From NCBI RefSeq assembly GCF_013155125.1, contig NZ_CP053564.1:875501-939500 (forward strand): a stretch of 64,000 bases of DNA, written 5' to 3'. Both the position numbers and the translations under genes were made by a program. The stretch is from Pseudonocardia broussonetiae. GTDB lineage: Bacteria > Actinomycetota > Actinomycetes > Mycobacteriales > Pseudonocardiaceae. The notes below the pieces were generated by a model, which was given only the letters and a program-made list of their open reading frames with translations, was not told the DNA's origin and ran no database searches. Below, piece by piece: positions 4,413 through 50,718 of the stretch (positions are counted from its first letter, which is position 1; each line of letters begins with the position of its first letter).

Positions 4413-5525
4413 ATGCCGAACCGGCTTGCTCGCGTTCGCCAAGAAGAGCAGTGGACGAAGGCACGCCTCGTCCACGAGCTGCGCCGTGCCGCCGGATCCA
4501 TGGCGCTGCCAGGCGACGAGAGCATGAAGCGCCGAATCGCCGTCTGGGAGAACCAGGACGGGGCGGTCAGCGACTTCTATCGGGAGCTGCTCTGCGCGGC
4601 ATACGGACGAAGCGCGCCCGAACTGGGCATCGCAGGCGAGCCGGAGATGCCGTCTGCCCCGGCCACAGTCGACGACGCGTTGCCCATCGCCTTCACTCGC
4701 CTCGACCTCGGGGTCGTCGCACTACTGCGTGACCACACCCAGAGCATCCGCATGCTCGACCGCCGACTCGGCGGCGCGCTGACCTTCAAGCAAGCCGTGG
4801 CGCACGTCGAGCAGATCGAGGGCCTGCTGCGGCACGCCCTTCCCGGCGCCCACCGGGAGGCGGCGGCCGACGAGCTCGGCCAGGCCGCCGCGCTCGCAGG
4901 CTGGCAGGCGCTCGACATGGGCGACGTGCGGGAGGCATGGCGGCTCCATGAGATCGCGACCGCTGCGGCGCGGGAGGGCGGTCAGATCGCCGGGCTCGCC
5001 TACGCCAGTGCGCAGCAGGGGTATGTCCTGCTCGACGCCGGTCACGCGGTCGACGCGCAGTCGGTGATGGAGTTCGCCCGGACGCTGGCCGGCTCCGGCG
5101 TTCCGGCCGTTCTGCAAGCCTGGCTCCACGCGGCGGAGGCTGAGGCCCTCGCGGCGCTGGGGCAGCGGGACGGCGTTCTCCGCGCCCTCGACGCGGCGGC
5201 TGACGCCCTGCCCGGCGACACTGGCGACGACTCGCTGCCCTTCGTCATGCTCGACGCCGGCCACCTCGCCCGCTGGCGGGGCCACTGCCTCGCCCGGCTC
5301 GGCGACGGAAAAGCGATCGAGGACTTGACGGATGCCCTCAGCGTGATGGGCGAGGGTCAGTACGGGCGGGCGGAAGTTGGGCTGCGTGTCGACTTGGCGC
5401 TCGCCTTCGCCGCCCGCGGCGATGTCAGCGAATCCCGCGCTCACGCGCTCCGAGGCGCCGAATTGGCCGGGCGCACCGGCTCGGAGCGTCAGCGGCGGAG
5501 GATCAGCCAGTTACTCGCTGCGTGA
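4413..5525 (+). CDS. helix-turn-helix regulator with helical-repeat (TPR-like) C-terminus
   Basis: The 370-residue protein has an N-terminal region (residues 1-75) like Streptomyces-type helix-turn-helix regulators (ARVRQEEQWTKARLVHELRR, then AVWENQDGAVSDFYRELLCAAYG). A long alpha-helical repeat region follows (about 105-365), rich in Ala/Leu/Arg with TPR-like spacing. The ATG at 4413 is preceded by GGGAGGATCG, a good ribosome binding site. It is divergent from the transfer operon and its end overlaps the convergent Nudix gene by 15 bases. Such regulators are frequent next to integrative elements and Nudix genes; the ligand and target are unknown. Confidence 0.75.
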   Translation: MPNRLARVRQEEQWTKARLVHELRRAAGSMALPGDESMKRRIAVWENQDGAVSDFYRELLCAAYGRSAPELGIAGEPEMPSAPATVDDALPIAFTRLDLGVVALLRDHTQSIRMLDRRLGGALTFKQAVAHVEQIEGLLRHALPGAHREAAADELGQAAALAGWQALDMGDVREAWRLHEIATAAAREGGQIAGLAYASAQQGYVLLDAGHAVDAQSVMEFARTLAGSGVPAVLQAWLHAAEAEALAALGQRDGVLRALDAAADALPGDTGDDSLPFVMLDAGHLARWRGHCLARLGDGKAIEDLTDALSVMGEGQYGRAEVGLRVDLALAFAARGDVSESRAHALRGAELAGRTGSERQRRRISQLLAA

Positions 5526-6092
5526 GTGCGGCGCACCCGGTCCGCTGAGCGCGAGCACGTGCAGCAGCCCGACGAGCGACCCCGAGTTCACGATCTTCTG
5601 CGTGCGGATCAGCTCCGGCACGCCGGCCAGAGGCACCCACTCGAATGTGCCCTCGTTCAGCTCCGTCGCCTCTGCCACCTTCTCGGCGCCGCGCGCGAGG
5701 AACACGTGGTGGGCGTTGCGCACCATGCCGACGTTGGGCTCGAAGGTCACGAGGTGCTCGATCGACCGCGGCCGGTACCCGGTCTCTTCCTCAGCCTCTC
5801 GCGCCGCTGTTTGCGCCGGCGTCTCGCCCGGGTCCAGCAGCCCGCCCGGCAACTCCCAGTTCCACACGTCCGGGGCGAACCGGTGCCGCCACGCCATCAG
5901 CACGTGCTCACCGGCGTCGTCGAGCACGACCGTGATCGCGGCCGGCTTCAGAGTCACGACGTGATGTTCGAACCGCTCCCCTGTTGGCAATATGACGTCA
6001 GCGAGCTCGACCGTCACCCACTCGTTGGCGTACACCTGCCGCTTACTCGCAACAGTCCATCGCTGCCCAACATCTCTGGCCTGATTGGTCAT
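5511..6092 (-). CDS. Nudix hydrolase (ADP-ribose pyrophosphatase-like)
   Basis: The 193-residue protein contains a complete Nudix box at residues 84-106: G84, E90, R98-E99, E102-E103 and G105 match G-x5-E-x7-R-E-U-x-E-E-x-G-U. The flanking residues (WELPGGLLDPGE, and before it a strand with HVLMAWRHR) resemble ADP-ribose or nucleoside-diphosphate-sugar pyrophosphatases. The enzyme would cleave a nucleoside diphosphate linked to another moiety, using Mg2+. It converges on the regulator gene with a 15-base overlap; that pairing recurs on actinomycete elements. Substrate specificity cannot be read from the sequence. Confidence 0.85.
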   Translation of the reverse strand: MTNQARDVGQRWTVASKRQVYANEWVTVELADVILPTGERFEHHVVTLKPAAITVVLDDAGEHVLMAWRHRFAPDVWNWELPGGLLDPGETPAQTAAREAEEETGYRPRSIEHLVTFEPNVGMVRNAHHVFLARGAEKVAEATELNEGTFEWVPLAGVPELIRTQKIVNSGSLVGLLHVLALSGPGAPHSRSE

Positions 6093-7701: not shown

Positions 7702-8169
7702 ATGCCACGGCCGAGCCCGAGCAACGCAGACGTGAGCCTTCGGATGTCGAAGCAGCGGAGCACGGGGACGTCGCCTGAGATGAGTCTTCGACGAGAGCTC
7801 CATCGCCGCGGCATGCGCTTCCGCGTCGAGCATCGCATCGACATAGATGGACTTCGACGGCGCAGAGCCGATATCGCATTCACCCGCCGCCGTATTGCGG
7901 TCTTTGTCGACGGATGTTTCTGGCACGCCTGCCCTCAGCACGCAACCAGCCCGAAGGCGAACGCCGCATGGTGGGCGACGAAGCTCGCCGGCAACGTCGC
8001 ACGCGACCGAGACACCGACGACCGTCTCTCTGCCGCGGGTTGGACGGTAGTGCGGATCTGGGAGCACGAGTCGGCAGCTGATGGCGCAGACCGGGTCGAG
8101 CGGGCTGTCGCCTCGGCAGAACCGCAAGGTCGACCACCAGGACCAAATCCCGCTCCGCCGAACCACTAG
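7702..8169 (+). CDS. vsr: very short patch repair (Vsr) endonuclease
   Basis: The 155-residue protein has the Vsr/PD-(D/E)XK fold signatures: TSPEMSLRRELHRRGMRFRV at the N-terminus, catalytic Asp57 in RADIAF, then VFVDGCFWHACPQH (D70, C72, H75, C77, H80; zinc and active-site residues) and a C-terminal WTVVRIWEHE strand. Vsr nicks DNA beside T:G mismatches produced by deamination of 5-methylcytosine, so its natural partner is the C5 methyltransferase at the other end of this locus. About 100 bases separate it from the Z1 gene on the same strand. The C-terminal 25 residues are Pro/Ala-rich and probably disordered. Confidence 0.92.
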   Translation: MPRPSPSNADVSLRMSKQRSTGTSPEMSLRRELHRRGMRFRVEHRIDIDGLRRRRADIAFTRRRIAVFVDGCFWHACPQHATSPKANAAWWATKLAGNVARDRDTDDRLSAAGWTVVRIWEHESAADGADRVERAVASAEPQGRPPGPNPAPPNH

Positions 8170-8268
8170 CACACGCCCTGTCACCCGATCGTGGGCGACA
8201 GGGACAGCTCCAGGTGACCACGGCCACTATGGTCACGGTCTGTCTGAGTCACAGGGGGATGACAGCGC

Positions 8269-10836
8269 GTGCAGACTGACTTCTTTGTGGTGTTCGCCGA
8301 GTGGGCCCGCAAGCACGGCCTCGACGAGGCTCGTCGCAGGTTCGGCCCCGTTCTGCAGGACGAGCTCGATGCCTTCGTCGCCGAGTACGAAGAGCGGATC
8401 ACCCGGATCGAGAGCGACGACCCGCCCGTCCTGCACGGTCCGCGGGACCCCTGGTACCCGGGCCCGAACGACGAGGGCGACACCTACTGGCCGGCGCTGA
8501 GAACCTACTTCGCGTCAGAACTCGGGTGGAGCGACGACCGCGTCCGGCCAGTGGACAAGGCGTCGAGCAAGGTGGTCGCCTACACACCCCGGCCGGAGCT
8601 CGAGAAGTGGACGTCGAAGGGCCTCGTCGTCGGCTACGTCCAGAGCGGCAAGACCACAAACTTCACATCGGTCATCGCGAAGGCTGCCGACGTGGGCTAC
8701 AAGCTGGTGATCGTGTTGTCCGGCATCCACAACGGGCTGCGCCGCCAGACCCAGGAGCGGCTCGACCAGCAGCTCCGGGAGCTCACGCCCACACGCTGGT
8801 TGACGCTGACCGACCAGGTACACGACTTCCGCCCGCCTTCGATGCAGTCGACCGCGCTGCTGCACAACCAGGACGGCGTCGCCCTCTGCGTGGCGAAGAA
8901 GAACAAGACCGTCCTGAAGCGGCTGGATGCATGGCTGGAGGACGCGTCGAAGCAACGGGTCCTCGCTGATCTCCCGGTGCTCGTGATCGACGACGAGGCC
9001 GACCAGGCCAGCGTGGAGACCCGGAGCATCAACCCCCTGATCCGGCAGATCCTCTCCAAGCTTCCGCGCTGCACCTACATCGGCTACACGGCGACACCGT
9101 TCGCGAACATCCTGATCGACCCCGCGGCGGGCGATCTCTATCCCGAGAACTTCATCCTCAACCTGCCGAGACCCGACGGGTACTTCGGCAGCGAACGGAT
9201 CTTCGGCAGGGATCTCGTCGAGGGCGAGGAGGCGAACGGCGCCGAGCTCGACGGGTTCGACATGGTCCGCATCATCGACGAGGACGAGATGGAAAGCCTC
9301 CGGCCGGCCGGCCGGAGGGCGGAGGCGACGTTCGAACCGGACATCACACCGTCCATGAAGTCCGCGACTCGGTGGTTCTGGCTCGCCACCGCCGCACGCC
9401 GAGCCCGCGGCGATGCGGGTCACTCGACGATGCTCATCCACACCTCGGTGAAGATCGCCGTCCACGAGGGGTTCAAGGATCCACTCATCGACCTGCGCGA
9501 CGACATGTCGACGCGGCTGCGGCGCGACGACCGCGCCCTCATCGACGAGCTGGAATCACTGTGGGATACCGAGACCGCCCGGGTGCCGGCCTCGGAGTTC
9601 CCCGGACTTCCGGTCACACCTTTCGCGGATGTCCTGGCGATGCTGCCGAAGGTCGTCGGATCGACCCGAGTGATCATCGACAACTGCCGCAGCGAGGACC
9701 GTCTCGACTACAGCGCGCCGGGCCAAATCGCCATCGCCGTCGGCGGTGCGACCCTGAGCCGGGGCTTGACCCTCGAAGGGCTGGTCGTCAGCTTCTTCGT
9801 CCGCGCTGCCCAGGCCTACGACACATTGCTGCAGATGGCACGGTGGTTCGGGTTCCGTCATGGTTACGAAGACCTGCCACGCATCTGGATGACCGACCAG
9901 CTGTGCGACTGGTTCCGCCACCTGTCGACGGTCGAGCACGAGATTCGTCTCGACATCGACCGGTACGAGCAGCAGGGCCTCACACCGACCGAGTTCGGCG
10001 TGCGGATCCGCACCCATCCGGTCCTCCGTGTGACGGCCAAGATGGGCGCCTACAAGCCCGCCTACGCGTCCTACGGCGGCCGCCGGATCCAGACGCGCTA
10101 CTTCCCCGTGAGCAACGCCGAATGGCTGCAGGCCAACCTTGGTGCGGCCGATGCGCTGGTCCGCAGCGTCCGCGGGGACGGCGGGATGGGCGAGCGGCTC
10201 GACAGTGGAGCCACGCTCTACCGGGACGTCGGCGCAGATATCGTCGAACGCTTCCTCGGTTCCTACCGTAGCCATGCGGACTCACCCGACCTCGACCGCG
10301 ACCTCGTGCTGAAGTACATCCGGAAGCAGCGCCAGCAGGGCGCGCTAGGGGCGTGGAGCGTGGCCGTCATGGCCGGTGTCAAGGATCGACACGGTGCTGT
10401 GAGCCTGGGCGGTCTGCCCTTCTCCCGCATTTCGCGCGCAAAGGTGAAGGACACGGGGCCGGAACGGGCCGACATCAAGACACTGATGTCGAAGGACCAC
10501 CGGGTCGTCGACCTCCACATGACGTCGCAGCATGCACGGGCGATGAACGAGTCGGCGCTCATGGACGCACGCAACTACGACCCGGTTGCGCGAGACCGCG
10601 GCCTCCTTCTGATCTATCCGATCGATCCCCGGTCCGAACCGGATCCACGGAACATCAAGAACAGGTCAGCTTTGGGTGCAGTAGGTGATGTCATCGGAAT
10701 GGCCCTCGTCTTCCCCGGGAACGCGGAAGCGAAGACCTCGGTCGGCAGCACCTACATCTCCGTCGACCTGTCCGAGGCCGATGTCGAGGTCGAGGAGGCC
10801 GAGCTCGCCAGCCTCAACGGCGAGGACGAGCAGTGA
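8269..10836 (+). CDS. Z1-domain superfamily II-like ATPase of a defence system
   Basis: The GTG start at 8269 follows a G-rich ribosome binding site. The 855-residue protein has a Walker A (GYVQSGKT, 122-129), a DEAD-like Walker B (LVIDDEAD, 238-245), a TAT motif (IGYTATPFAN, 271-280) and a late helicase-like block (GGATLSRGLTLEG near 492, then LLQMARWFGFR near 520). This is the architecture of Z1-domain proteins. Family knowledge: Z1 ATPases occur with PD-(D/E)XK nucleases and GHKL ATPases in restriction-modification-like systems. The stop overlaps the nuclease start (GTGA). It probably translocates or remodels DNA for the coupled nuclease. Confidence 0.92.
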   Translation: MQTDFFVVFAEWARKHGLDEARRRFGPVLQDELDAFVAEYEERITRIESDDPPVLHGPRDPWYPGPNDEGDTYWPALRTYFASELGWSDDRVRPVDKASSKVVAYTPRPELEKWTSKGLVVGYVQSGKTTNFTSVIAKAADVGYKLVIVLSGIHNGLRRQTQERLDQQLRELTPTRWLTLTDQVHDFRPPSMQSTALLHNQDGVALCVAKKNKTVLKRLDAWLEDASKQRVLADLPVLVIDDEADQASVETRSINPLIRQILSKLPRCTYIGYTATPFANILIDPAAGDLYPENFILNLPRPDGYFGSERIFGRDLVEGEEANGAELDGFDMVRIIDEDEMESLRPAGRRAEATFEPDITPSMKSATRWFWLATAARRARGDAGHSTMLIHTSVKIAVHEGFKDPLIDLRDDMSTRLRRDDRALIDELESLWDTETARVPASEFPGLPVTPFADVLAMLPKVVGSTRVIIDNCRSEDRLDYSAPGQIAIAVGGATLSRGLTLEGLVVSFFVRAAQAYDTLLQMARWFGFRHGYEDLPRIWMTDQLCDWFRHLSTVEHEIRLDIDRYEQQGLTPTEFGVRIRTHPVLRVTAKMGAYKPAYASYGGRRIQTRYFPVSNAEWLQANLGAADALVRSVRGDGGMGERLDSGATLYRDVGADIVERFLGSYRSHADSPDLDRDLVLKYIRKQRQQGALGAWSVAVMAGVKDRHGAVSLGGLPFSRISRAKVKDTGPERADIKTLMSKDHRVVDLHMTSQHARAMNESALMDARNYDPVARDRGLLLIYPIDPRSEPDPRNIKNRSALGAVGDVIGMALVFPGNAEAKTSVGSTYISVDLSEADVEVEEAELASLNGEDEQ

Positions 10837-11825
10837 CGGCTCCGCACGACTGGCTGCGAGAGCTGCGGCACTCGTGGCCGCTGCTGCGCGGCGATCGTCG
10901 AACGGAAATCGCGACGGTGCCCCTGCCCCTGGGTGGAACGGGTGCGCCGGTCCGCGCAGGCGTCGACGGCAGCGGCGCGCGCCACCTGCTCGTGCCCGTC
11001 GGCGAGGAGGAGATCCGACCCGATCACGTCGAGAGTGCGCTGCTCGTCGAGCTCCGGACCTACACGTTCTCCCGGACGCCGCTGCGCTACGTCGACATCA
11101 GCTGTGCCCGGCCTGATCTGTTCGACGTCTTCGATGAGATCCTTGCTGACGTGCTCGTCGGGGTGGGAGATGCGCCACAGGCCCCCGCCCGGGCGGCGTT
11201 GGACGTCGTCAGCCGCTGGCGGGCACTGCTCGCCACCCATCGAGCTCGCCTCCTCACGCTCGTCGGACAGATGTCGCTCGTCGGCGAGCTGACGGTGCTC
11301 GATCTCGTGACCCGCGACGAGTCGCTCGACATCTCCTCGTGGCGCGGCCCGCGTCGCGAACCGCACGACATCGTGCTGCCGGGGTTCGCCGTCGAGGTGA
11401 AGGCGATCGGCACCACGTCGACCTCGGTCGAGATCCACGGGGTCCATCAGCTGGAGCCCCCCGGCGTCCCGCTCGCGCTCGTCCTGACCACGGTCGCCGA
11501 GGACGACTCGGGAGCCACGCTGCCCGAACTCGTCGACCGGATCCTCGCCCGCGTGACGGACCGCGGCCGGGCCGTGCGGCTGTTGACCGCAGCCGGTTAC
11601 GCGTTGGCCGATGCCGATCACTACCGGGAGAGGTTCGCGGTCACGGACATCGCTCACGTCGAGGCGACAGATGCGGTGCCGAGGATCGTTCCGAAGTCGT
11701 TCGGTGAGCAGGGTGTTCCAGCAGGCGTCGACGGCATCTCGTACCGCGTCGAACTCGACGCCCTCGACGGTCTCGTCGCGCGCGGGGAGGCCGCGTTGCT
11801 GGGCTGGGTCGGGGCGTTGCGATGA
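10833..11825 (+). CDS. PD-(D/E)XK nuclease-fold protein (DUF4420-like)
   Basis: The GTG start overlaps the Z1 stop by 4 bases. The 330-residue protein shows a plausible nuclease core: E152 in GELTVLDL, D179 in PHDI and E188-V-K190 in FAVEVKA, matching E...D...ExK of PD-(D/E)XK enzymes, with WRGP preceding the Asp as in the DUF4420 proteins I know from Z1 loci. It is the likely DNA-cleaving subunit of the system. It is coupled at both ends, to Z1 and to the GHKL ATPase, so the three proteins are probably made in fixed ratio. Confidence 0.85.
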   Translation: MTAPHDWLRELRHSWPLLRGDRRTEIATVPLPLGGTGAPVRAGVDGSGARHLLVPVGEEEIRPDHVESALLVELRTYTFSRTPLRYVDISCARPDLFDVFDEILADVLVGVGDAPQAPARAALDVVSRWRALLATHRARLLTLVGQMSLVGELTVLDLVTRDESLDISSWRGPRREPHDIVLPGFAVEVKAIGTTSTSVEIHGVHQLEPPGVPLALVLTTVAEDDSGATLPELVDRILARVTDRGRAVRLLTAAGYALADADHYRERFAVTDIAHVEATDAVPRIVPKSFGEQGVPAGVDGISYRVELDALDGLVARGEAALLGWVGALR

Positions 11826-13633
11826 CGGCCCAGTGGTGGTCGCAGCCGGTAGCGGCCGAGGGGTCGACCGCCTCGGAAGGCATCCGCCGTCAGCTCGGCA
11901 AGCCGCACCTCGATCCGCTCACCGTGCTCATCCGGGAGACGGCGCAGAACACCTGCGACGCAGCGCTGCCCGGTGGGGGTGATGTCGAGTTCGCCGTACG
12001 GCTCCACCGGTTGTCAGGCAACCGGCTCGCCGGCTGGCGGGAGTTCCTGCTTCCCGAGCCGGCCGGATCGGCGCTCGGGATCGCCGAGGCCATGAACCGT
12101 GGTCCGCTCCTGATGACGCTGTCGGACCGCGGAACGACCGGTCTGGGCGGACCGCTCCGGGCGGATGAGAGTCCGCGCGAGGGCGAGCGACCGGACTTCG
12201 TGAACTTCATCCGCAACGTCGGCGAGCGCAAGGCTGTGGACCTGGGCGGGGGCTCGTACGGCTTCGGCAAAGGAATCCTCTACAACGTCAGCCGATGCCA
12301 CCTCATCGTCGCCGACAGCGTCTGCATGTTCCGGGGGCGGCTACAACGACGACTCATCGGTGCTGCGCTCGGTGACGGGTTCACGCATGGCGGACGCCGG
12401 TGGACCGGGCGCCACTGGCTCGGGGTACTGGAGGACGGGCACACTCGTCCGCTGCTCGACGACGAGGCCGAAGAGATGGCCGGCAAGCTCGGCCTTCCTC
12501 GGTTCGCCGAAGGCGCGACGGGGACGAGCGTCGCCATCGTCGATGTCGACCTGGGCCGGCGCCAGGGCCAGGACGGCGACGCTGTGCGCACACCTGAGGA
12601 GGCTGCTGACTTCATCGTCTCCACAATGCTGTGGAACCTGTGGCCCCGGATGCTCTCCGACCGGCCGAATCGGTTGGTCTGCTCGATGCGCCGAGACGGC
12701 TTCGTCAACGAGGTACCCGATCCCGAGCAACTGATCGAGCTGTCGCCCTTCGTGAAGGCCTACCGAGCGCTCGCGGAGGAAGGCCGCTACCAGGTTCCGC
12801 CTCGCAAGTCCGAGCCGCGCGAGATCGGGCGGTTCGCAGTCGTCAAGGGTATGGCTCCCCTGCGTCCGAATCCGGCGGTGGCCGCAGCAGCACCGTTCGA
12901 GGGCAGGGCCCATCACTGCGCCCGCATGCGGCACGCCGACCTTGTCGTCGACTACTTCAAGGGCGAGACGCCCACCGACGAGATGATCCAGTACGGCGCG
13001 GTCTTCCGCTCCAGTCCGGAGGCCGACGGCTTCTTCGCCGAGGCGGAACCGCCGACGCACGACGACTGGGTAGTCAACGGTCTGCGCGGCACGGCGCGAG
13101 GCGTTGTCCAACTGGCGACGGGCTTCATCCGCGACCGCCTGCGCGAGCAGTCGACCCCGGCAGCCGGTCCTGTTCCTTCGGGTGAGGCGCCATTGGCATC
13201 GCTGGCGGGCCGCCTGTCGGGATTGATGACGGCCGAGGGCGACCTGGCCGAGGGTTCCGTGCGCCGTGAGCCGTCCGGCGGTGGGCGCCGCTCCAGCGGT
13301 GGTCCCCGATTCGTCACTGCACCGCACCTGGTGCAGGAGAACGGAGTACCGGTGATCTTCGGAGTTGTTCAGATGCCGTCATGGGCGTCGACGAGAGTTG
13401 TCGTGGCGGAGCCGGTGATCGTCCTGGACAGCGGTGTCGAGCCGGTGGACGGACGAACCGACGGCCCCGTCGTCCTCGGTTGGCGATCGGTCGAGAGCGA
13501 CCCGCCTGTCGACGGTGCAGAACTGGTCATCGAGCGGCCATCGGATCGCACGTGGGAACTGCGGGTCCGGCCGTCCGCGGATGCGGTCGTCCGCGTCAAC
13601 CTGACGGTGCGCGAGCTCGGCGGTGACGGATGA
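11822..13633 (+). CDS. GHKL (paraMORC/MutL-like) ATPase
   Basis: The 603-residue protein has the three GHKL nucleotide-binding motifs in order: LIRETAQNTCDA (E39, N43, D46), SDRGTTGLGG (D102, G104, G107) and GGGSYGFGKG (142-151, the ATP lid). The remaining 400 residues would contain an S5-like domain and a long C-terminal arm; a Ser/Gly-rich, probably flexible segment lies near residue 480-495. From memory, Iyer and co-workers described such paraMORC ATPases in prokaryotic restriction-modification loci with helicases and nucleases. ATP-driven dimer closure around DNA is the expected mode. It overlaps both neighbours by 4 bases. Confidence 0.88.
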   Translation: MTAQWWSQPVAAEGSTASEGIRRQLGKPHLDPLTVLIRETAQNTCDAALPGGGDVEFAVRLHRLSGNRLAGWREFLLPEPAGSALGIAEAMNRGPLLMTLSDRGTTGLGGPLRADESPREGERPDFVNFIRNVGERKAVDLGGGSYGFGKGILYNVSRCHLIVADSVCMFRGRLQRRLIGAALGDGFTHGGRRWTGRHWLGVLEDGHTRPLLDDEAEEMAGKLGLPRFAEGATGTSVAIVDVDLGRRQGQDGDAVRTPEEAADFIVSTMLWNLWPRMLSDRPNRLVCSMRRDGFVNEVPDPEQLIELSPFVKAYRALAEEGRYQVPPRKSEPREIGRFAVVKGMAPLRPNPAVAAAAPFEGRAHHCARMRHADLVVDYFKGETPTDEMIQYGAVFRSSPEADGFFAEAEPPTHDDWVVNGLRGTARGVVQLATGFIRDRLREQSTPAAGPVPSGEAPLASLAGRLSGLMTAEGDLAEGSVRREPSGGGRRSSGGPRFVTAPHLVQENGVPVIFGVVQMPSWASTRVVVAEPVIVLDSGVEPVDGRTDGPVVLGWRSVESDPPVDGAELVIERPSDRTWELRVRPSADAVVRVNLTVRELGGDG

Positions 13634-14511
13634 AGGACGTCAAGCCCTTCTTCGTCCCGCCTGCCGCGCTCGTTCAAGCGTCGACCTGGGCCCACCTCGT
13701 CGACGACGAGTGGGAGGAGCTCGGCGCCTACGTCGAGAACTGGGACTACCGGACCCGCCTACGTCTGCGCGCCACCATCGAGGCCGACGTCGACGCGATT
13801 CGCACGGCCGCCCGTCTCGTTGATGCGTCTCCGCTGGTCTGGTCCATCGGATGGCGTGCGACCGACACCGGCCTTCTCGGAACCCCGTCCCTCGTACCGT
13901 TCGAGGACGGTCCGTGGACTTTCGAGCTGGACATCCCCGCCGACCGGGCCGGCGCGACCATCGTCCTTTCCCGGCGCCTGGTGCTGCGTCGTGACCGCAT
14001 GTTCGCTTCTGCCGGGGAGGCCCGATGGGCCGGCAGCATCCTGTGGTCCGACGAGACGACCGTTCGGCTCACCGGGCAGGGAGCCGCCTTTCCCACGGAG
14101 GTCATCGACTTCCGCACGCTCGGACGCGAGCCGGGAAGCAGCTGGTTCCTCGACCTGCCGGCTGCGGCCGATGTACCGGCGATGGGCTCGATGATCCTGC
14201 TCATCAACTCGGCCGACACCGCGCTCGTCGGCGCCGTGACCCGAACCAGGCGCCACACCGAGATCCAGCAGAACCTCATCGACGCCATGGAGGAAGGTGT
14301 GGTCGAGGAACTGGTCCGATGGGCGCTCGCCCGCTGGCCCGAGCTCGCCGACGCCGAACCGGACTCCGTGGGATCCGCCGCCCGGACGCTCACGCGTCGG
14401 GTACTGCCCGACCCGGACGCGTGGACATCGCCGGATGTCGACTCCATGGCCCTCAAGTCCGCAATCGTCGCCGGGGCACGCGGCATCGGCTTCGGAAGGG
14501 CGCTGTCGTGA
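13630..14511 (+). CDS. unknown protein of the Z1-paraMORC operon
   Basis: The 293-residue protein overlaps the GHKL ATPase stop (ATGA) and its own stop overlaps the next start (GTGA), so it is an integral operon member. No family is recognised. The N-terminal two thirds looks beta-rich (WTFELDIP, ATIVLSRRLVL, WSDETTVRL). A C-terminal helical part (EIQQNLIDAMEEGVVEELVRWAL) follows, with a final Gly-rich GARGIGFGRALS. Lacking nuclease, ATPase or methylase motifs, it could be a structural or recognition subunit bridging the ATPase to other components. That role is inference from position only. Confidence 0.7.
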   Translation: MKDVKPFFVPPAALVQASTWAHLVDDEWEELGAYVENWDYRTRLRLRATIEADVDAIRTAARLVDASPLVWSIGWRATDTGLLGTPSLVPFEDGPWTFELDIPADRAGATIVLSRRLVLRRDRMFASAGEARWAGSILWSDETTVRLTGQGAAFPTEVIDFRTLGREPGSSWFLDLPAAADVPAMGSMILLINSADTALVGAVTRTRRHTEIQQNLIDAMEEGVVEELVRWALARWPELADAEPDSVGSAARTLTRRVLPDPDAWTSPDVDSMALKSAIVAGARGIGFGRALS

Positions 14512-15248
14512 GTCAGCTCTGGCCGCGGCTCAATCCCGCCGTCGCACGCGCCCTGTTCGCCGATCTGGCGGGGCGGACCACCGACCAGCTGGCGGGCTCT
14601 GCGCGGGGCGATCACCCGCAGTCCACATTCGCCGCTACCGGCGGCGTGCGTGTGTCGGCTGCCGAGGTGACCGCCCTCGCTTCCTCGCTCCGCGAGACGG
14701 CGGTGGAGTTCGGCTATCCCGGGTCGGCGGACGACGGCGAACGGATCGCGTTCGACCGTGCAGCCGCGGAGGTGCTCTATGCCGCCACCGACCTCACCAC
14801 CGTCGAGGCCGCCCATCGAGGGGTGTGGAACTTCGTCGCGCTCGTGGCCGCCCCGGACCTCGTTCAATGGCGATTCGGACGGAACAACACCGAACGCTGG
14901 ATCGCGTCGGACCTGAGCCGCCACATGTTCTCCCGCCTCTGGTGGCAGGCATTGACGTTCGCCGTACCCACGCCTGACGGCCGGATGGACTACTCGCTCC
15001 TGCGCGGTCTTTCGGAGAGCGACCTCAACCAGATCACCGAGCGGCGCTCCCTTGCAGGCAACTCGCGGCTGGCCCAGTCCATCGCCCGCCTGATCACTTC
15101 AGCGAACGTCGACGTCAGCCGACGCGCGCTCCTGCGGGATCTGACCCCCCGGCTGCGGCGACGCCTGGCCTTCATAGACTTCGCCGTCCTCACCGACGAG
15201 CAGCTCGACGATCACGTGCGCGCCCTCGCCCACGGAACTTCCTCATGA
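14508..15248 (+). CDS. DUF6339-like helical protein of the Z1-paraMORC operon
   Basis: I use the GTG at 14508, overlapping the previous stop (GTGA), giving 246 residues. The protein is largely alpha-helical. A central segment (WNFVALVAAPDLVQWRFG, about 105-125, then a Trp-rich WWQALTF) resembles proteins labelled DUF6339 found in similar loci; that label is from memory and moderately sure. A short duplicated pattern at the C-terminus (LLRDLTPRLRRRLAFIDFAVLT) may mediate oligomer contacts. There is a 33-base gap to the methyltransferase. Its role in defence is not known to me. Confidence 0.65.
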   Translation: MSQLWPRLNPAVARALFADLAGRTTDQLAGSARGDHPQSTFAATGGVRVSAAEVTALASSLRETAVEFGYPGSADDGERIAFDRAAAEVLYAATDLTTVEAAHRGVWNFVALVAAPDLVQWRFGRNNTERWIASDLSRHMFSRLWWQALTFAVPTPDGRMDYSLLRGLSESDLNQITERRSLAGNSRLAQSIARLITSANVDVSRRALLRDLTPRLRRRLAFIDFAVLTDEQLDDHVRALAHGTSS

Positions 15249-15281
15249 GCCGGCGCGCCGCTGGACAGGCCTCACGAACAC

Positions 15282-16439
15282 GTGTTCGATGACGCGCGGG
15301 ACCGACGAACGATCACGGGGGACGCGGTGCAGGGCGACGAGATCACCCCGTCCACGCCGAATCCCGGCCAACTGCGCACGATCGATCTGTTCGCCGGCTG
15401 CGGCGGCCTCACCGCAGGCTTCGTCTCGACCGGGCACTACCGTCCCGTCGCGGCGGTGGAGTCCGATCTCGCGGCGGCAGCGACCTATGCGGCGAACTTC
15501 GGCGAGGAGCACGTCCACTGGGGCGACATCGCGGAGTGGGTCCTTGGCGACCTACCGGATGCCGATGTGATCATCGGTGGGCCGCCTTGCCAGGGCTTCT
15601 CGAACCTCAACAAGCAGCGGGGCGACGGCGACAAGCGGAACACGCTCTGGCAGAGGTACGTCGACACGATCGTTGCCGTCGAGCCCCGCGCCTTCCTCGT
15701 CGAGAACGTTGATCGTTTCGCCTACAGCGCGGAGTACCAGCAGCTGCTGCGTGAGACCGACCTGGGCGGCCGGCTCGAGGACTACGAGCTCGACATGTAC
15801 GTCGTCCGCGCCACCGACTTCGGTGCAGCCCAGCTGCGCCGGAGGACGATCGTCATCGGCACCCACCGCGACCTGCCTCGGATCGAGGTCCCGCGCGATC
15901 GGCGTCCCATCGACGAGTGGACGACAGTCAAGGATGCAATCGGCGACCTCGCACCCTACGTCGACCCGGAATCGAAACACCTCCCTGAGTCGACGACCGA
16001 GGCGTTTGGCCAGACCCTGCCCGGCACCTTCAAGTCGCCGGATCTGCACGTCACTCGTCACTACACCGACTTGTCCCTCCAGCGATTCGCCCACATCAGG
16101 GAGGGCGGCAATCGCCTCAGCCTGCCTGATCACCTCAAGGCGAAGTGCTGGGTCGGGCACGAGACCGGATCCTTGGACGTCATGGGCCGCATGCACTGGG
16201 GCAAGCCGTCGGTGACGATCCGTACGGAGTTCTTCAAGCCTGAAAAGGGACGCTACCTGCACCCTGATGAACCGCGAGCGATCACCCACCATGAAGCAGC
16301 ACGGCTTCAGGGTTTCTCCGATGATTTCCTGTGGTGCGGCACGAAACTTCAGATCGCTCGGCAGATCGGCAACGCAGTTCCGCTTCCTCTAGCGGCAGCA
16401 ATAGCAAGAGAAATCTTCGACAGGTTAAGTGCACTATAA
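15282..16439 (+). CDS. dcm: C5-cytosine DNA methyltransferase
   Basis: The 385-residue protein has the ordered C5-methyltransferase motifs: I (DLFAGCGGLTAGF, 35-47), IV (GGPPCQGFS, 99-107, catalytic C103), VI (ENV, near 142), VIII (QLRRR, near 185) and X (QIGNAVP near the C-terminus). GTG 15282 is the longest start. GTG at 15327, just before QGDEITPS, is a plausible alternative because motif I begins only 20 residues later. Methylation would mark self DNA against the Z1/nuclease/GHKL effector, and its deaminated product is the substrate of Vsr. The target-recognition region (about 200-330) does not reveal the site. Confidence 0.93.
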   Translation: MFDDARDRRTITGDAVQGDEITPSTPNPGQLRTIDLFAGCGGLTAGFVSTGHYRPVAAVESDLAAAATYAANFGEEHVHWGDIAEWVLGDLPDADVIIGGPPCQGFSNLNKQRGDGDKRNTLWQRYVDTIVAVEPRAFLVENVDRFAYSAEYQQLLRETDLGGRLEDYELDMYVVRATDFGAAQLRRRTIVIGTHRDLPRIEVPRDRRPIDEWTTVKDAIGDLAPYVDPESKHLPESTTEAFGQTLPGTFKSPDLHVTRHYTDLSLQRFAHIREGGNRLSLPDHLKAKCWVGHETGSLDVMGRMHWGKPSVTIRTEFFKPEKGRYLHPDEPRAITHHEAARLQGFSDDFLWCGTKLQIARQIGNAVPLPLAAAIAREIFDRLSAL

Positions 16440-17289: not shown

Positions 17290-17870
17290 CGAATGCTTTG
17301 CGGGACACCACGAGCCAGACCCGCCCAACGCCGAGAAGGCCGCGCGGTACCTGAACGCCGCCCAGGCCGATCTGGAGTGAGGGGCTGCTCTCTGGCTCAC
17401 CATGCTCGCCGAGCCCCGCAGAGGCAAGGCTTCCGCGCTGCGCTGGCGCCACGTCGACTTCGAGCGCTGACTGCTCACGATCGACCGCCGCAACGCCCCC
17501 AACCGAAGTCCGGACTGAAGGGTAAGACCACCAAGACCGGCCAGGCCCGCAAGATCGCCCTCGACCCGCACACCCTCGGCCTGCTGACCACCCACCGCAA
17601 GCTGTTCGAGTCTCGCTGCGCCGAGCTCGGCTCCACCCTCAGCCTCGACGCCTTCGTCCTCTCCCCCGCCCCAACGGCACTACCCGTTCCTGCCGCGGGC
17701 CATCAGCCAGCGCTACCGCGGGCCCGCTCTGCGCCTCGGACTCCGCAGCACCCGTTTCCACTCGCTTCGCCACTACTCGGCGACCGAACTCGTGGCGGCG
17801 GCGTCGACATCCGCACCGTCGCCGGCCCGGCTCGGGCACGGCAGCTCGCAAATGTAAGCCCAGGCGCGCG
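17290..17870 (+). pseudogene. degenerate tyrosine recombinase (integrase), C-terminal part
   Basis: Scattered over three frames are pieces of an actinomycete element integrase: AEKAARYLNAAQADLE, LWLTMLAEPRRGKASALRWRHVDF (with the Arg-containing box), TGQARKIALDPHTLGLL, and then RFHSLRHYSATELVAA (the H-x-x-R box) followed by a LGHG tail. In-frame TGA codons occur at 17378-17380 (where Trp is normally found) and 17468-17470 (where Gly is expected). At least three indels separate the remaining pieces. The gene is dead. It shows that an AICE-type element was integrated here or nearby. The N-terminal part is absent at this location. Confidence 0.75.
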
Positions 17871-23218: not shown

Positions 23219-23717
23219 ATGCTGCTCGGTAATGCAAAAGCCTTATTAGCGGGCCTTTGCTTTCGTCCTGAGCGAATTCGCCGACGGCGTGCGACGCCCG
23301 CAGGAACTGTAGTCGAACCACCTCGTACCACCCTCGCTTGTCACGCCCGCAATTCTGCCCCGCTTCGTCTGCTACGGTTTGACCTGTGCGGCCAACGACC
23401 GCCCTCATATCCGAATCCGACAAGGGCATGTTCGACACGGAGATGCCGCATGGCCGCTGCTGCCACAGCGCGCCACCAGCCTCTGATCAGGGCCGTCCTG
23501 CGTCGTCATCCGCGGCTGGCTGGCGTCGAGTGGAATGTGCCCAGCGAGTCCGAGAGAACTTTCGACTCGGCAACGGTGGTGACCACACCGCACGGCCGTC
23601 TCCATGGAGCCGTTCGTGGAGCGAAGCTGCGATGGTCGGTGTGTCGTGGAGCTGCCAACGCTGGCGATGGCAGAAGGTAGGTGCAGGTAGATGCTTGGGA
23701 GGTAGAGGTGGCTTACT
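23219..23717. other. intergenic region inside element end, no supported gene
   Basis: About 500 bases between the kinase stop and the tRNA fragment. Reading frames are short and Arg-rich with no recognisable domains. On the element model this is the terminal, non-coding end next to attR. The sequence at about 23640-23717 replaces what would be the 5' half of the tRNA. Confidence 0.4.
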
Positions 23718-23760
23718 CTCCTAAAGCGGGTGCCGCAGGTTCGAATCCTGCCGGGGGCAC
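23718..23760 (+). other. 3' fragment of tRNA-Arg(CCU): probable attR site
   Basis: The sequence from 23718 reproduces the 3' half of a tRNA: anticodon loop CTCCTAA (anticodon CCT), 3' anticodon strand AGCGG, variable region, a perfect T arm (GCAGG-TTCGAAT-CCTGC) and acceptor strand CGGGGGC followed by A. Upstream, the matching 5' acceptor strand (GCCCCCG) is missing and the 5' anticodon strand pairs poorly, so this is not a working tRNA gene. Integrative elements that use tRNA genes leave exactly such a 3' duplicate. The intact tRNA-Arg(CCU) should lie at the element's other end, left of the window. Confidence 0.75.
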
Positions 23761-23783
23761 AAGCACTGACCAGTGGACACGCT

Positions 23784-23839
23784 CCGCGATATCGCGGGCT
23801 GACACCTCACCCCGCGATATCGCGGGCTGACACCTCACG
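23784..23839. repeat. two tandem 28-bp repeats with CCGCGATATCGCGG palindrome
   Basis: Two direct copies of a 28-base unit (23784-23811 and 23812-23839) differ only at the last base. Each begins with the perfect 14-base palindrome CCGCGATATCGCGG, followed by GCTGACACCTCAC. A third palindrome copy (13 of 14 bases) lies at 23984-23996, exactly 200 bases after the first. The repeats start 24 bases beyond the tRNA fragment. They could be recombinase arm sites, a regulator operator, or a dispersed extragenic palindrome family of this genus. Confidence 0.7.
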
Positions 23840-23904
23840 CTGCTCGAGCTCGCTCGACGGAGGCTCATGCCACCTTGGACACGACGACGGCCAGCGCGGC
23901 TCGA

Positions 23905-24130
23905 CCCTTCCGCTGCCGAGCGGCTCGTACCGCGTCACCGTGTACGCCGACTGCGACGGGCTGACAGGCAAGGCGCGGCAGCTCCGCGATATCGCGAGAA
24001 TCTACGACGAGGCCAAGAGGATGCTTACGCGCCTGTCGCTCCAGGTCGACGAGGACAAGCAGGCGAGGAGCATCGTCACTGTCTGCCCAGCTACGACAGT
24101 GGCGCAGCTGGCGGTCGCGAAGGGCAGTCG
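23905..24130 (+). pseudogene. integrase N-terminal remnant
   Basis: The frame reading PSGSYRVTVYADCDGLTGKA and then IYDEAKRMLTRLSLQVDEDK corresponds to the N-terminal arm-binding domain of AICE-type tyrosine integrases (family pattern GSYRV.VYAG.DP.TGK, then EA...L.QVDE). It breaks off after about 65 residues into unrelated sequence. No catalytic domain follows. It lies just right of the tRNA fragment, on the plus strand. With the C-terminal remnant at 17.3-17.9 kb it shows either two dead integrases or one integrase split by rearrangement. Confidence 0.6.
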
Positions 24131-50463: not shown

Positions 50464-50718
50464 CTCGGTCCTCCGTTCGACCCGTTCGGGTCGCTCGCAC
50501 CGACGAACCGCCCAGCCCACATCGTCGGGTCGCCGGATCAGGAGGAGGACGCACTGCGACCTGGTGCAGTGAGTACGGAGACGCAGACGGAGGCGAGTAC
50601 TCCCTGGGGCCCGGGTCCGACGGGGCTCAGCGGGCCTCCAGAACGCTGCGCACCCTCACCCGCGGCGATCCCGGTGCACGCGGACGGCCCGCCGGACGGC
50701 GACGGACGCGGAACGAGC

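What the first reader, a model, noticed from the sequence alone, without database searches (positions are those of the whole stretch)
7702..16439. Seven-gene Z1/PD-(D/E)XK/paraMORC/Dcm/Vsr defence operon with two unassigned subunits
Directly visible: vsr, a Z1 ATPase, a nuclease-fold protein, a GHKL ATPase, two unknown proteins and a C5 methyltransferase on one strand, five of them joined by 4-base overlaps. The component families are known from prokaryotic restriction-modification-like loci (paraMORC work by Iyer and colleagues, from memory). The seven-part combination and the roles of the two unknown members are not described to me. This is the most likely candidate in the window for an undescribed anti-phage mechanism: methylation for self, ATP-driven sensing or translocation, coupled cleavage, and mismatch clean-up by Vsr.
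Basis: partly seen in the sequence, partly recalled or inferred. Interest (0 to 1): 0.82.

Follow-up and report, generated by a model that had tools for sequence, protein, structure and literature searches.

The report
Five-gene restriction-like defence core, already predicted
The window holds an intact, widely conserved set of five overlapping genes, with a DNA methylase and a repair nuclease beside it, that most likely destroys foreign DNA; others have already predicted such a system from genome data, and some relatives carry its core beside other known phage-defence genes.

The parts
7702..8169 (+). vsr: very-short-patch-repair endonuclease (accessory)
   Evidence: TIGR00632 113.1 bits, cut-off 97.85; PF03852 E 2.3e-15; D57, W74 and H75 43 of 43 homologues, D70 36 of 43
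8269..10836 (+). [not shown]
   Evidence: PF10593 E 1.6e-65; Walker A GxVQSGKT, DDExD and the key residues of DTLLQMxRWFG 58 of 58 homologues
10833..11825 (+). DUF4420 PD-(D/E)XK nuclease-fold protein (core in most loci; missing in about five lineages)
   Evidence: PF14390 E 2e-41; E152 53/53, D179 52/53, E188 53/53, K190 52/53
11822..13633 (+). GHKL ATPase, paraMORC2-type (core)
   Evidence: no Pfam hit at E<=1; N-box E39/N43 56 of 59, G2 GxxGxGK 57 of 59, ExxxH = E409/H413 59 of 59
13630..14511 (+). U1: unnamed family, predicted beta-sandwich plus helical tail (core)
   Evidence: 59 of 59 GHKL-seeded loci; no Pfam hit at E<=1, no NCBIfam hit for the window protein; AlphaFold2 pLDDT 91.0, pTM 0.59
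14508..15248 (+). U2: DUF6339 protein, predicted all-helical (core)
   Evidence: PF19866 28.6 bits, cut-off 23.2; 59 of 59 GHKL-seeded loci; W107, R122, R179 invariant in an alignment of 71 sequences; pLDDT 95.9, pTM 0.92
15282..16439 (+). dcm: C5-cytosine DNA methyltransferase (accessory but usual)
   Evidence: PF00145 E 1.7e-59; motifs I, IV (PPCQ), VI (ENV), VIII, X present
6035..6068 (.). left edge of the stretch, variable within the genus, in which the operon lies
   Evidence: alignments to three same-genus genomes stop at window 6068, 6062 and 6035; in one of them long alignment resumes at 50717

Best explanation
[not shown]
Confidence: 0.58

Rival explanations
1. A defence system that does not use self-methylation: the core senses phage DNA structures or replication intermediates and the methylase/Vsr pair are neighbours in a defence island.
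For: Dcm and Vsr vary in position and strand; L005, L009 and L051 have neither within at least 7.3 kb on both sides of GHKL, nor L183 in its fetched DNA. The set sits next to other systems in some loci: DISARM, Gabija by PADLOC GajA/GajB and a TmtA hit (system names of these models recalled).
Confidence: 0.18
2. A modification-dependent (type IV-like) system that cuts foreign modified DNA, the own methylase serving another purpose such as masking.
For: Iyer 2008 suggests that eukaryotic MORCs respond to epigenetic signals such as DNA methylation.
Against: Pfam shows no methyl-reader domain in the seven proteins at E<=1, and a cognate methylase in the same operon would expose the host.
Confidence: 0.1
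3. A mismatch-repair or chromosome-maintenance operon built around Vsr, Dcm and a MutL-like ATPase.
For: Vsr, Dcm and a GHKL ATPase together recall very-short-patch repair; Iyer 2008 mentions possible recruitment to repair.
Confidence: 0.06
4. A decayed or silent island remnant.
For: Some relatives show broken copies, for example a split U2 in L093 and GHKL pieces in L156.
Against: All seven window genes are open with third-position G+C of 0.69-0.87 and their catalytic motifs are intact.
Confidence: 0.04

Closest known systems
Miller, Stern and Burstein 2022 putative defence system 'Type I' (PMC9523054; sections 11 and 22 read)
   Different: Their figure and table were not held, so that the three genes are GHKL, U1 and U2 is inferred; the sections read give no GHKL assignment for Type I, no folds and no DISARM link
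paraMORC2-containing restriction-modification neighbourhoods (Iyer, Abhiman and Aravind 2008, PMC2292703; three of four parts of the text read)
MZA (mzaABCDE; named in PMC9523054 and NCBIfam, its origin in Rousset 2022 is recalled)
CglI / NgoAVII ATP-dependent restriction systems (PMC4267653, passages)
   Different: Their nuclease is a PLD-B3 protein and the systems have three genes; no GHKL, U1 or U2
DISARM
   Different: No DrmA or DrmB in the first 26 kb of the window

Membership tests
paraMORC2 (Iyer 2008) | GHKL ATP-binding motifs (N, G1, G2 boxes) | tested here: met
   E39/N43 56 of 59, D102 and G107 56 of 59, GxxGxGK 57 of 59; the others are gaps or one differing row
[quoted passage not shown]
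   E409-PPT-H413, E and H each 59 of 59; that it lies in an S5 fold was not modelled
paraMORC2 (Iyer 2008) | S5-fold domain after the GHKL domain | not tested
Iyer 2008 third operon type | SFII helicase with DThhQXuRhFG motif | tested here: met
   DTLLQMARWFG at 518-528; D, T, Q, R, F, G 58 of 58
Iyer 2008 third operon type | RE-fold partner with E-D-ExK | tested here: met
   E152 53/53, D179 52/53, E188 53/53, K190 52/53
[not shown]
Miller 2022 Type I | three additional genes are the same families as GHKL, U1, U2 | not testable with these tools
   Fig. 5c and Supplementary Table 11 not held; the text gives only the number
MZA | MzaC and MzaD equivalog scores | tested here: not met
   394.8 against 1500 bits; 71.2 against 420 bits
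MZA | AIPR-family MzaE in the operon | tested here: not met
   no AIPR hit among the ten proteins scanned
CglI / NgoAVII | PLD-B3 R-protein | tested here: not met
   no such Pfam hit among the seven proteins at E<=1
DISARM | DrmA and DrmB | tested here: not met
   no hit in window 1-26000 with profiles whose seeds were four DrmA (three PADLOC-confirmed) and three DrmB (two PADLOC-confirmed) relatives
Vsr (TIGR00632) | score over curated cut-off | tested here: met
   113.1 against 97.85 bits
DUF6339 (PF19866) | score over curated cut-off | tested here: met
   28.6 against 23.2 bits

The most novel reading that the evidence does not exclude
Probability: 0.33. Interest if true: 0.75.

Novelty: new member of a known kind. 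Interest (0 to 1): 0.47.

Why it matters

Tried and rejected
MZA membership: rejected on cut-offs and on lack of AIPR. U1 and U2 as passengers: rejected. Seven-gene strict operon: rejected, Vsr and Dcm move.

Full report

Limits. DISARM is also near 6 of 96 canonical loci, including the window's closest relative L002, defence genes cluster in any case, and the kinship-corrected test is not significant. The portable-module reading is therefore a hypothesis (0.33, lowered by 0.02 when the recount showed that three hybrids lack a methylase nearby; the main reading went from 0.60 to 0.58 for the same reason). The link of U1' to U1 is a 74% profile match.

Setting. Three same-genus genomes align to the window up to about 6.06 kb; in one the long alignment resumes at 50.7 kb, so the operon sits at the left end of a 44.6-kb stretch that is variable in the genus. 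The GHKL protein has no match in 50,697 phage records and 6 in 72,556 plasmids.

Verdict. A real, intact, widespread restriction-like defence core, already predicted in print; no experimental test was seen in the searches made. The useful additions are the two fixed subunits, the paraMORC2 assignment and the DISARM hybrids.

Noticed in passing
[not shown]
   Followed up: partly
[not shown]
   Followed up: partly
L158, L161, L162, L163, L078, L080: Divergent trio GHKL'-U1'-U2' with two C5 methylase hits each, facing a gene of roughly 1,600 residues. The L158 copy hits PADLOC TmtA and the L078 copy helicase domains; the other four were not scanned. A P-loop ORF lies after it.
   Followed up: partly
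L103 7255-12660: Haloarchaeal plasmid with GHKL, a U1'-like gene and DUF6339 in a row, preceded by a 508-aa protein of no Pfam or PADLOC family.
   Followed up: no
[not shown]
   Followed up: no
L040, L026, L019, L024 (U2 genes): U2 is 402-637 aa long here, with a C-terminal extension that has no Pfam hit over cut-off.
   Followed up: partly
[not shown]
   Followed up: no
window 4413-5525: NsdA-family regulator (NF053720 134.3 bits, cut-off 75) left of the variable stretch.
   Followed up: no
window 6060-50717: About 44.6 kb that is replaced by 6.9 kb in the same-genus genome behind L178; its G+C is low (0.56-0.62) between 16 and 26 kb. Short matches to two other genomes lie at 17580-17754 and near 23600-23926.
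   Followed up: partly
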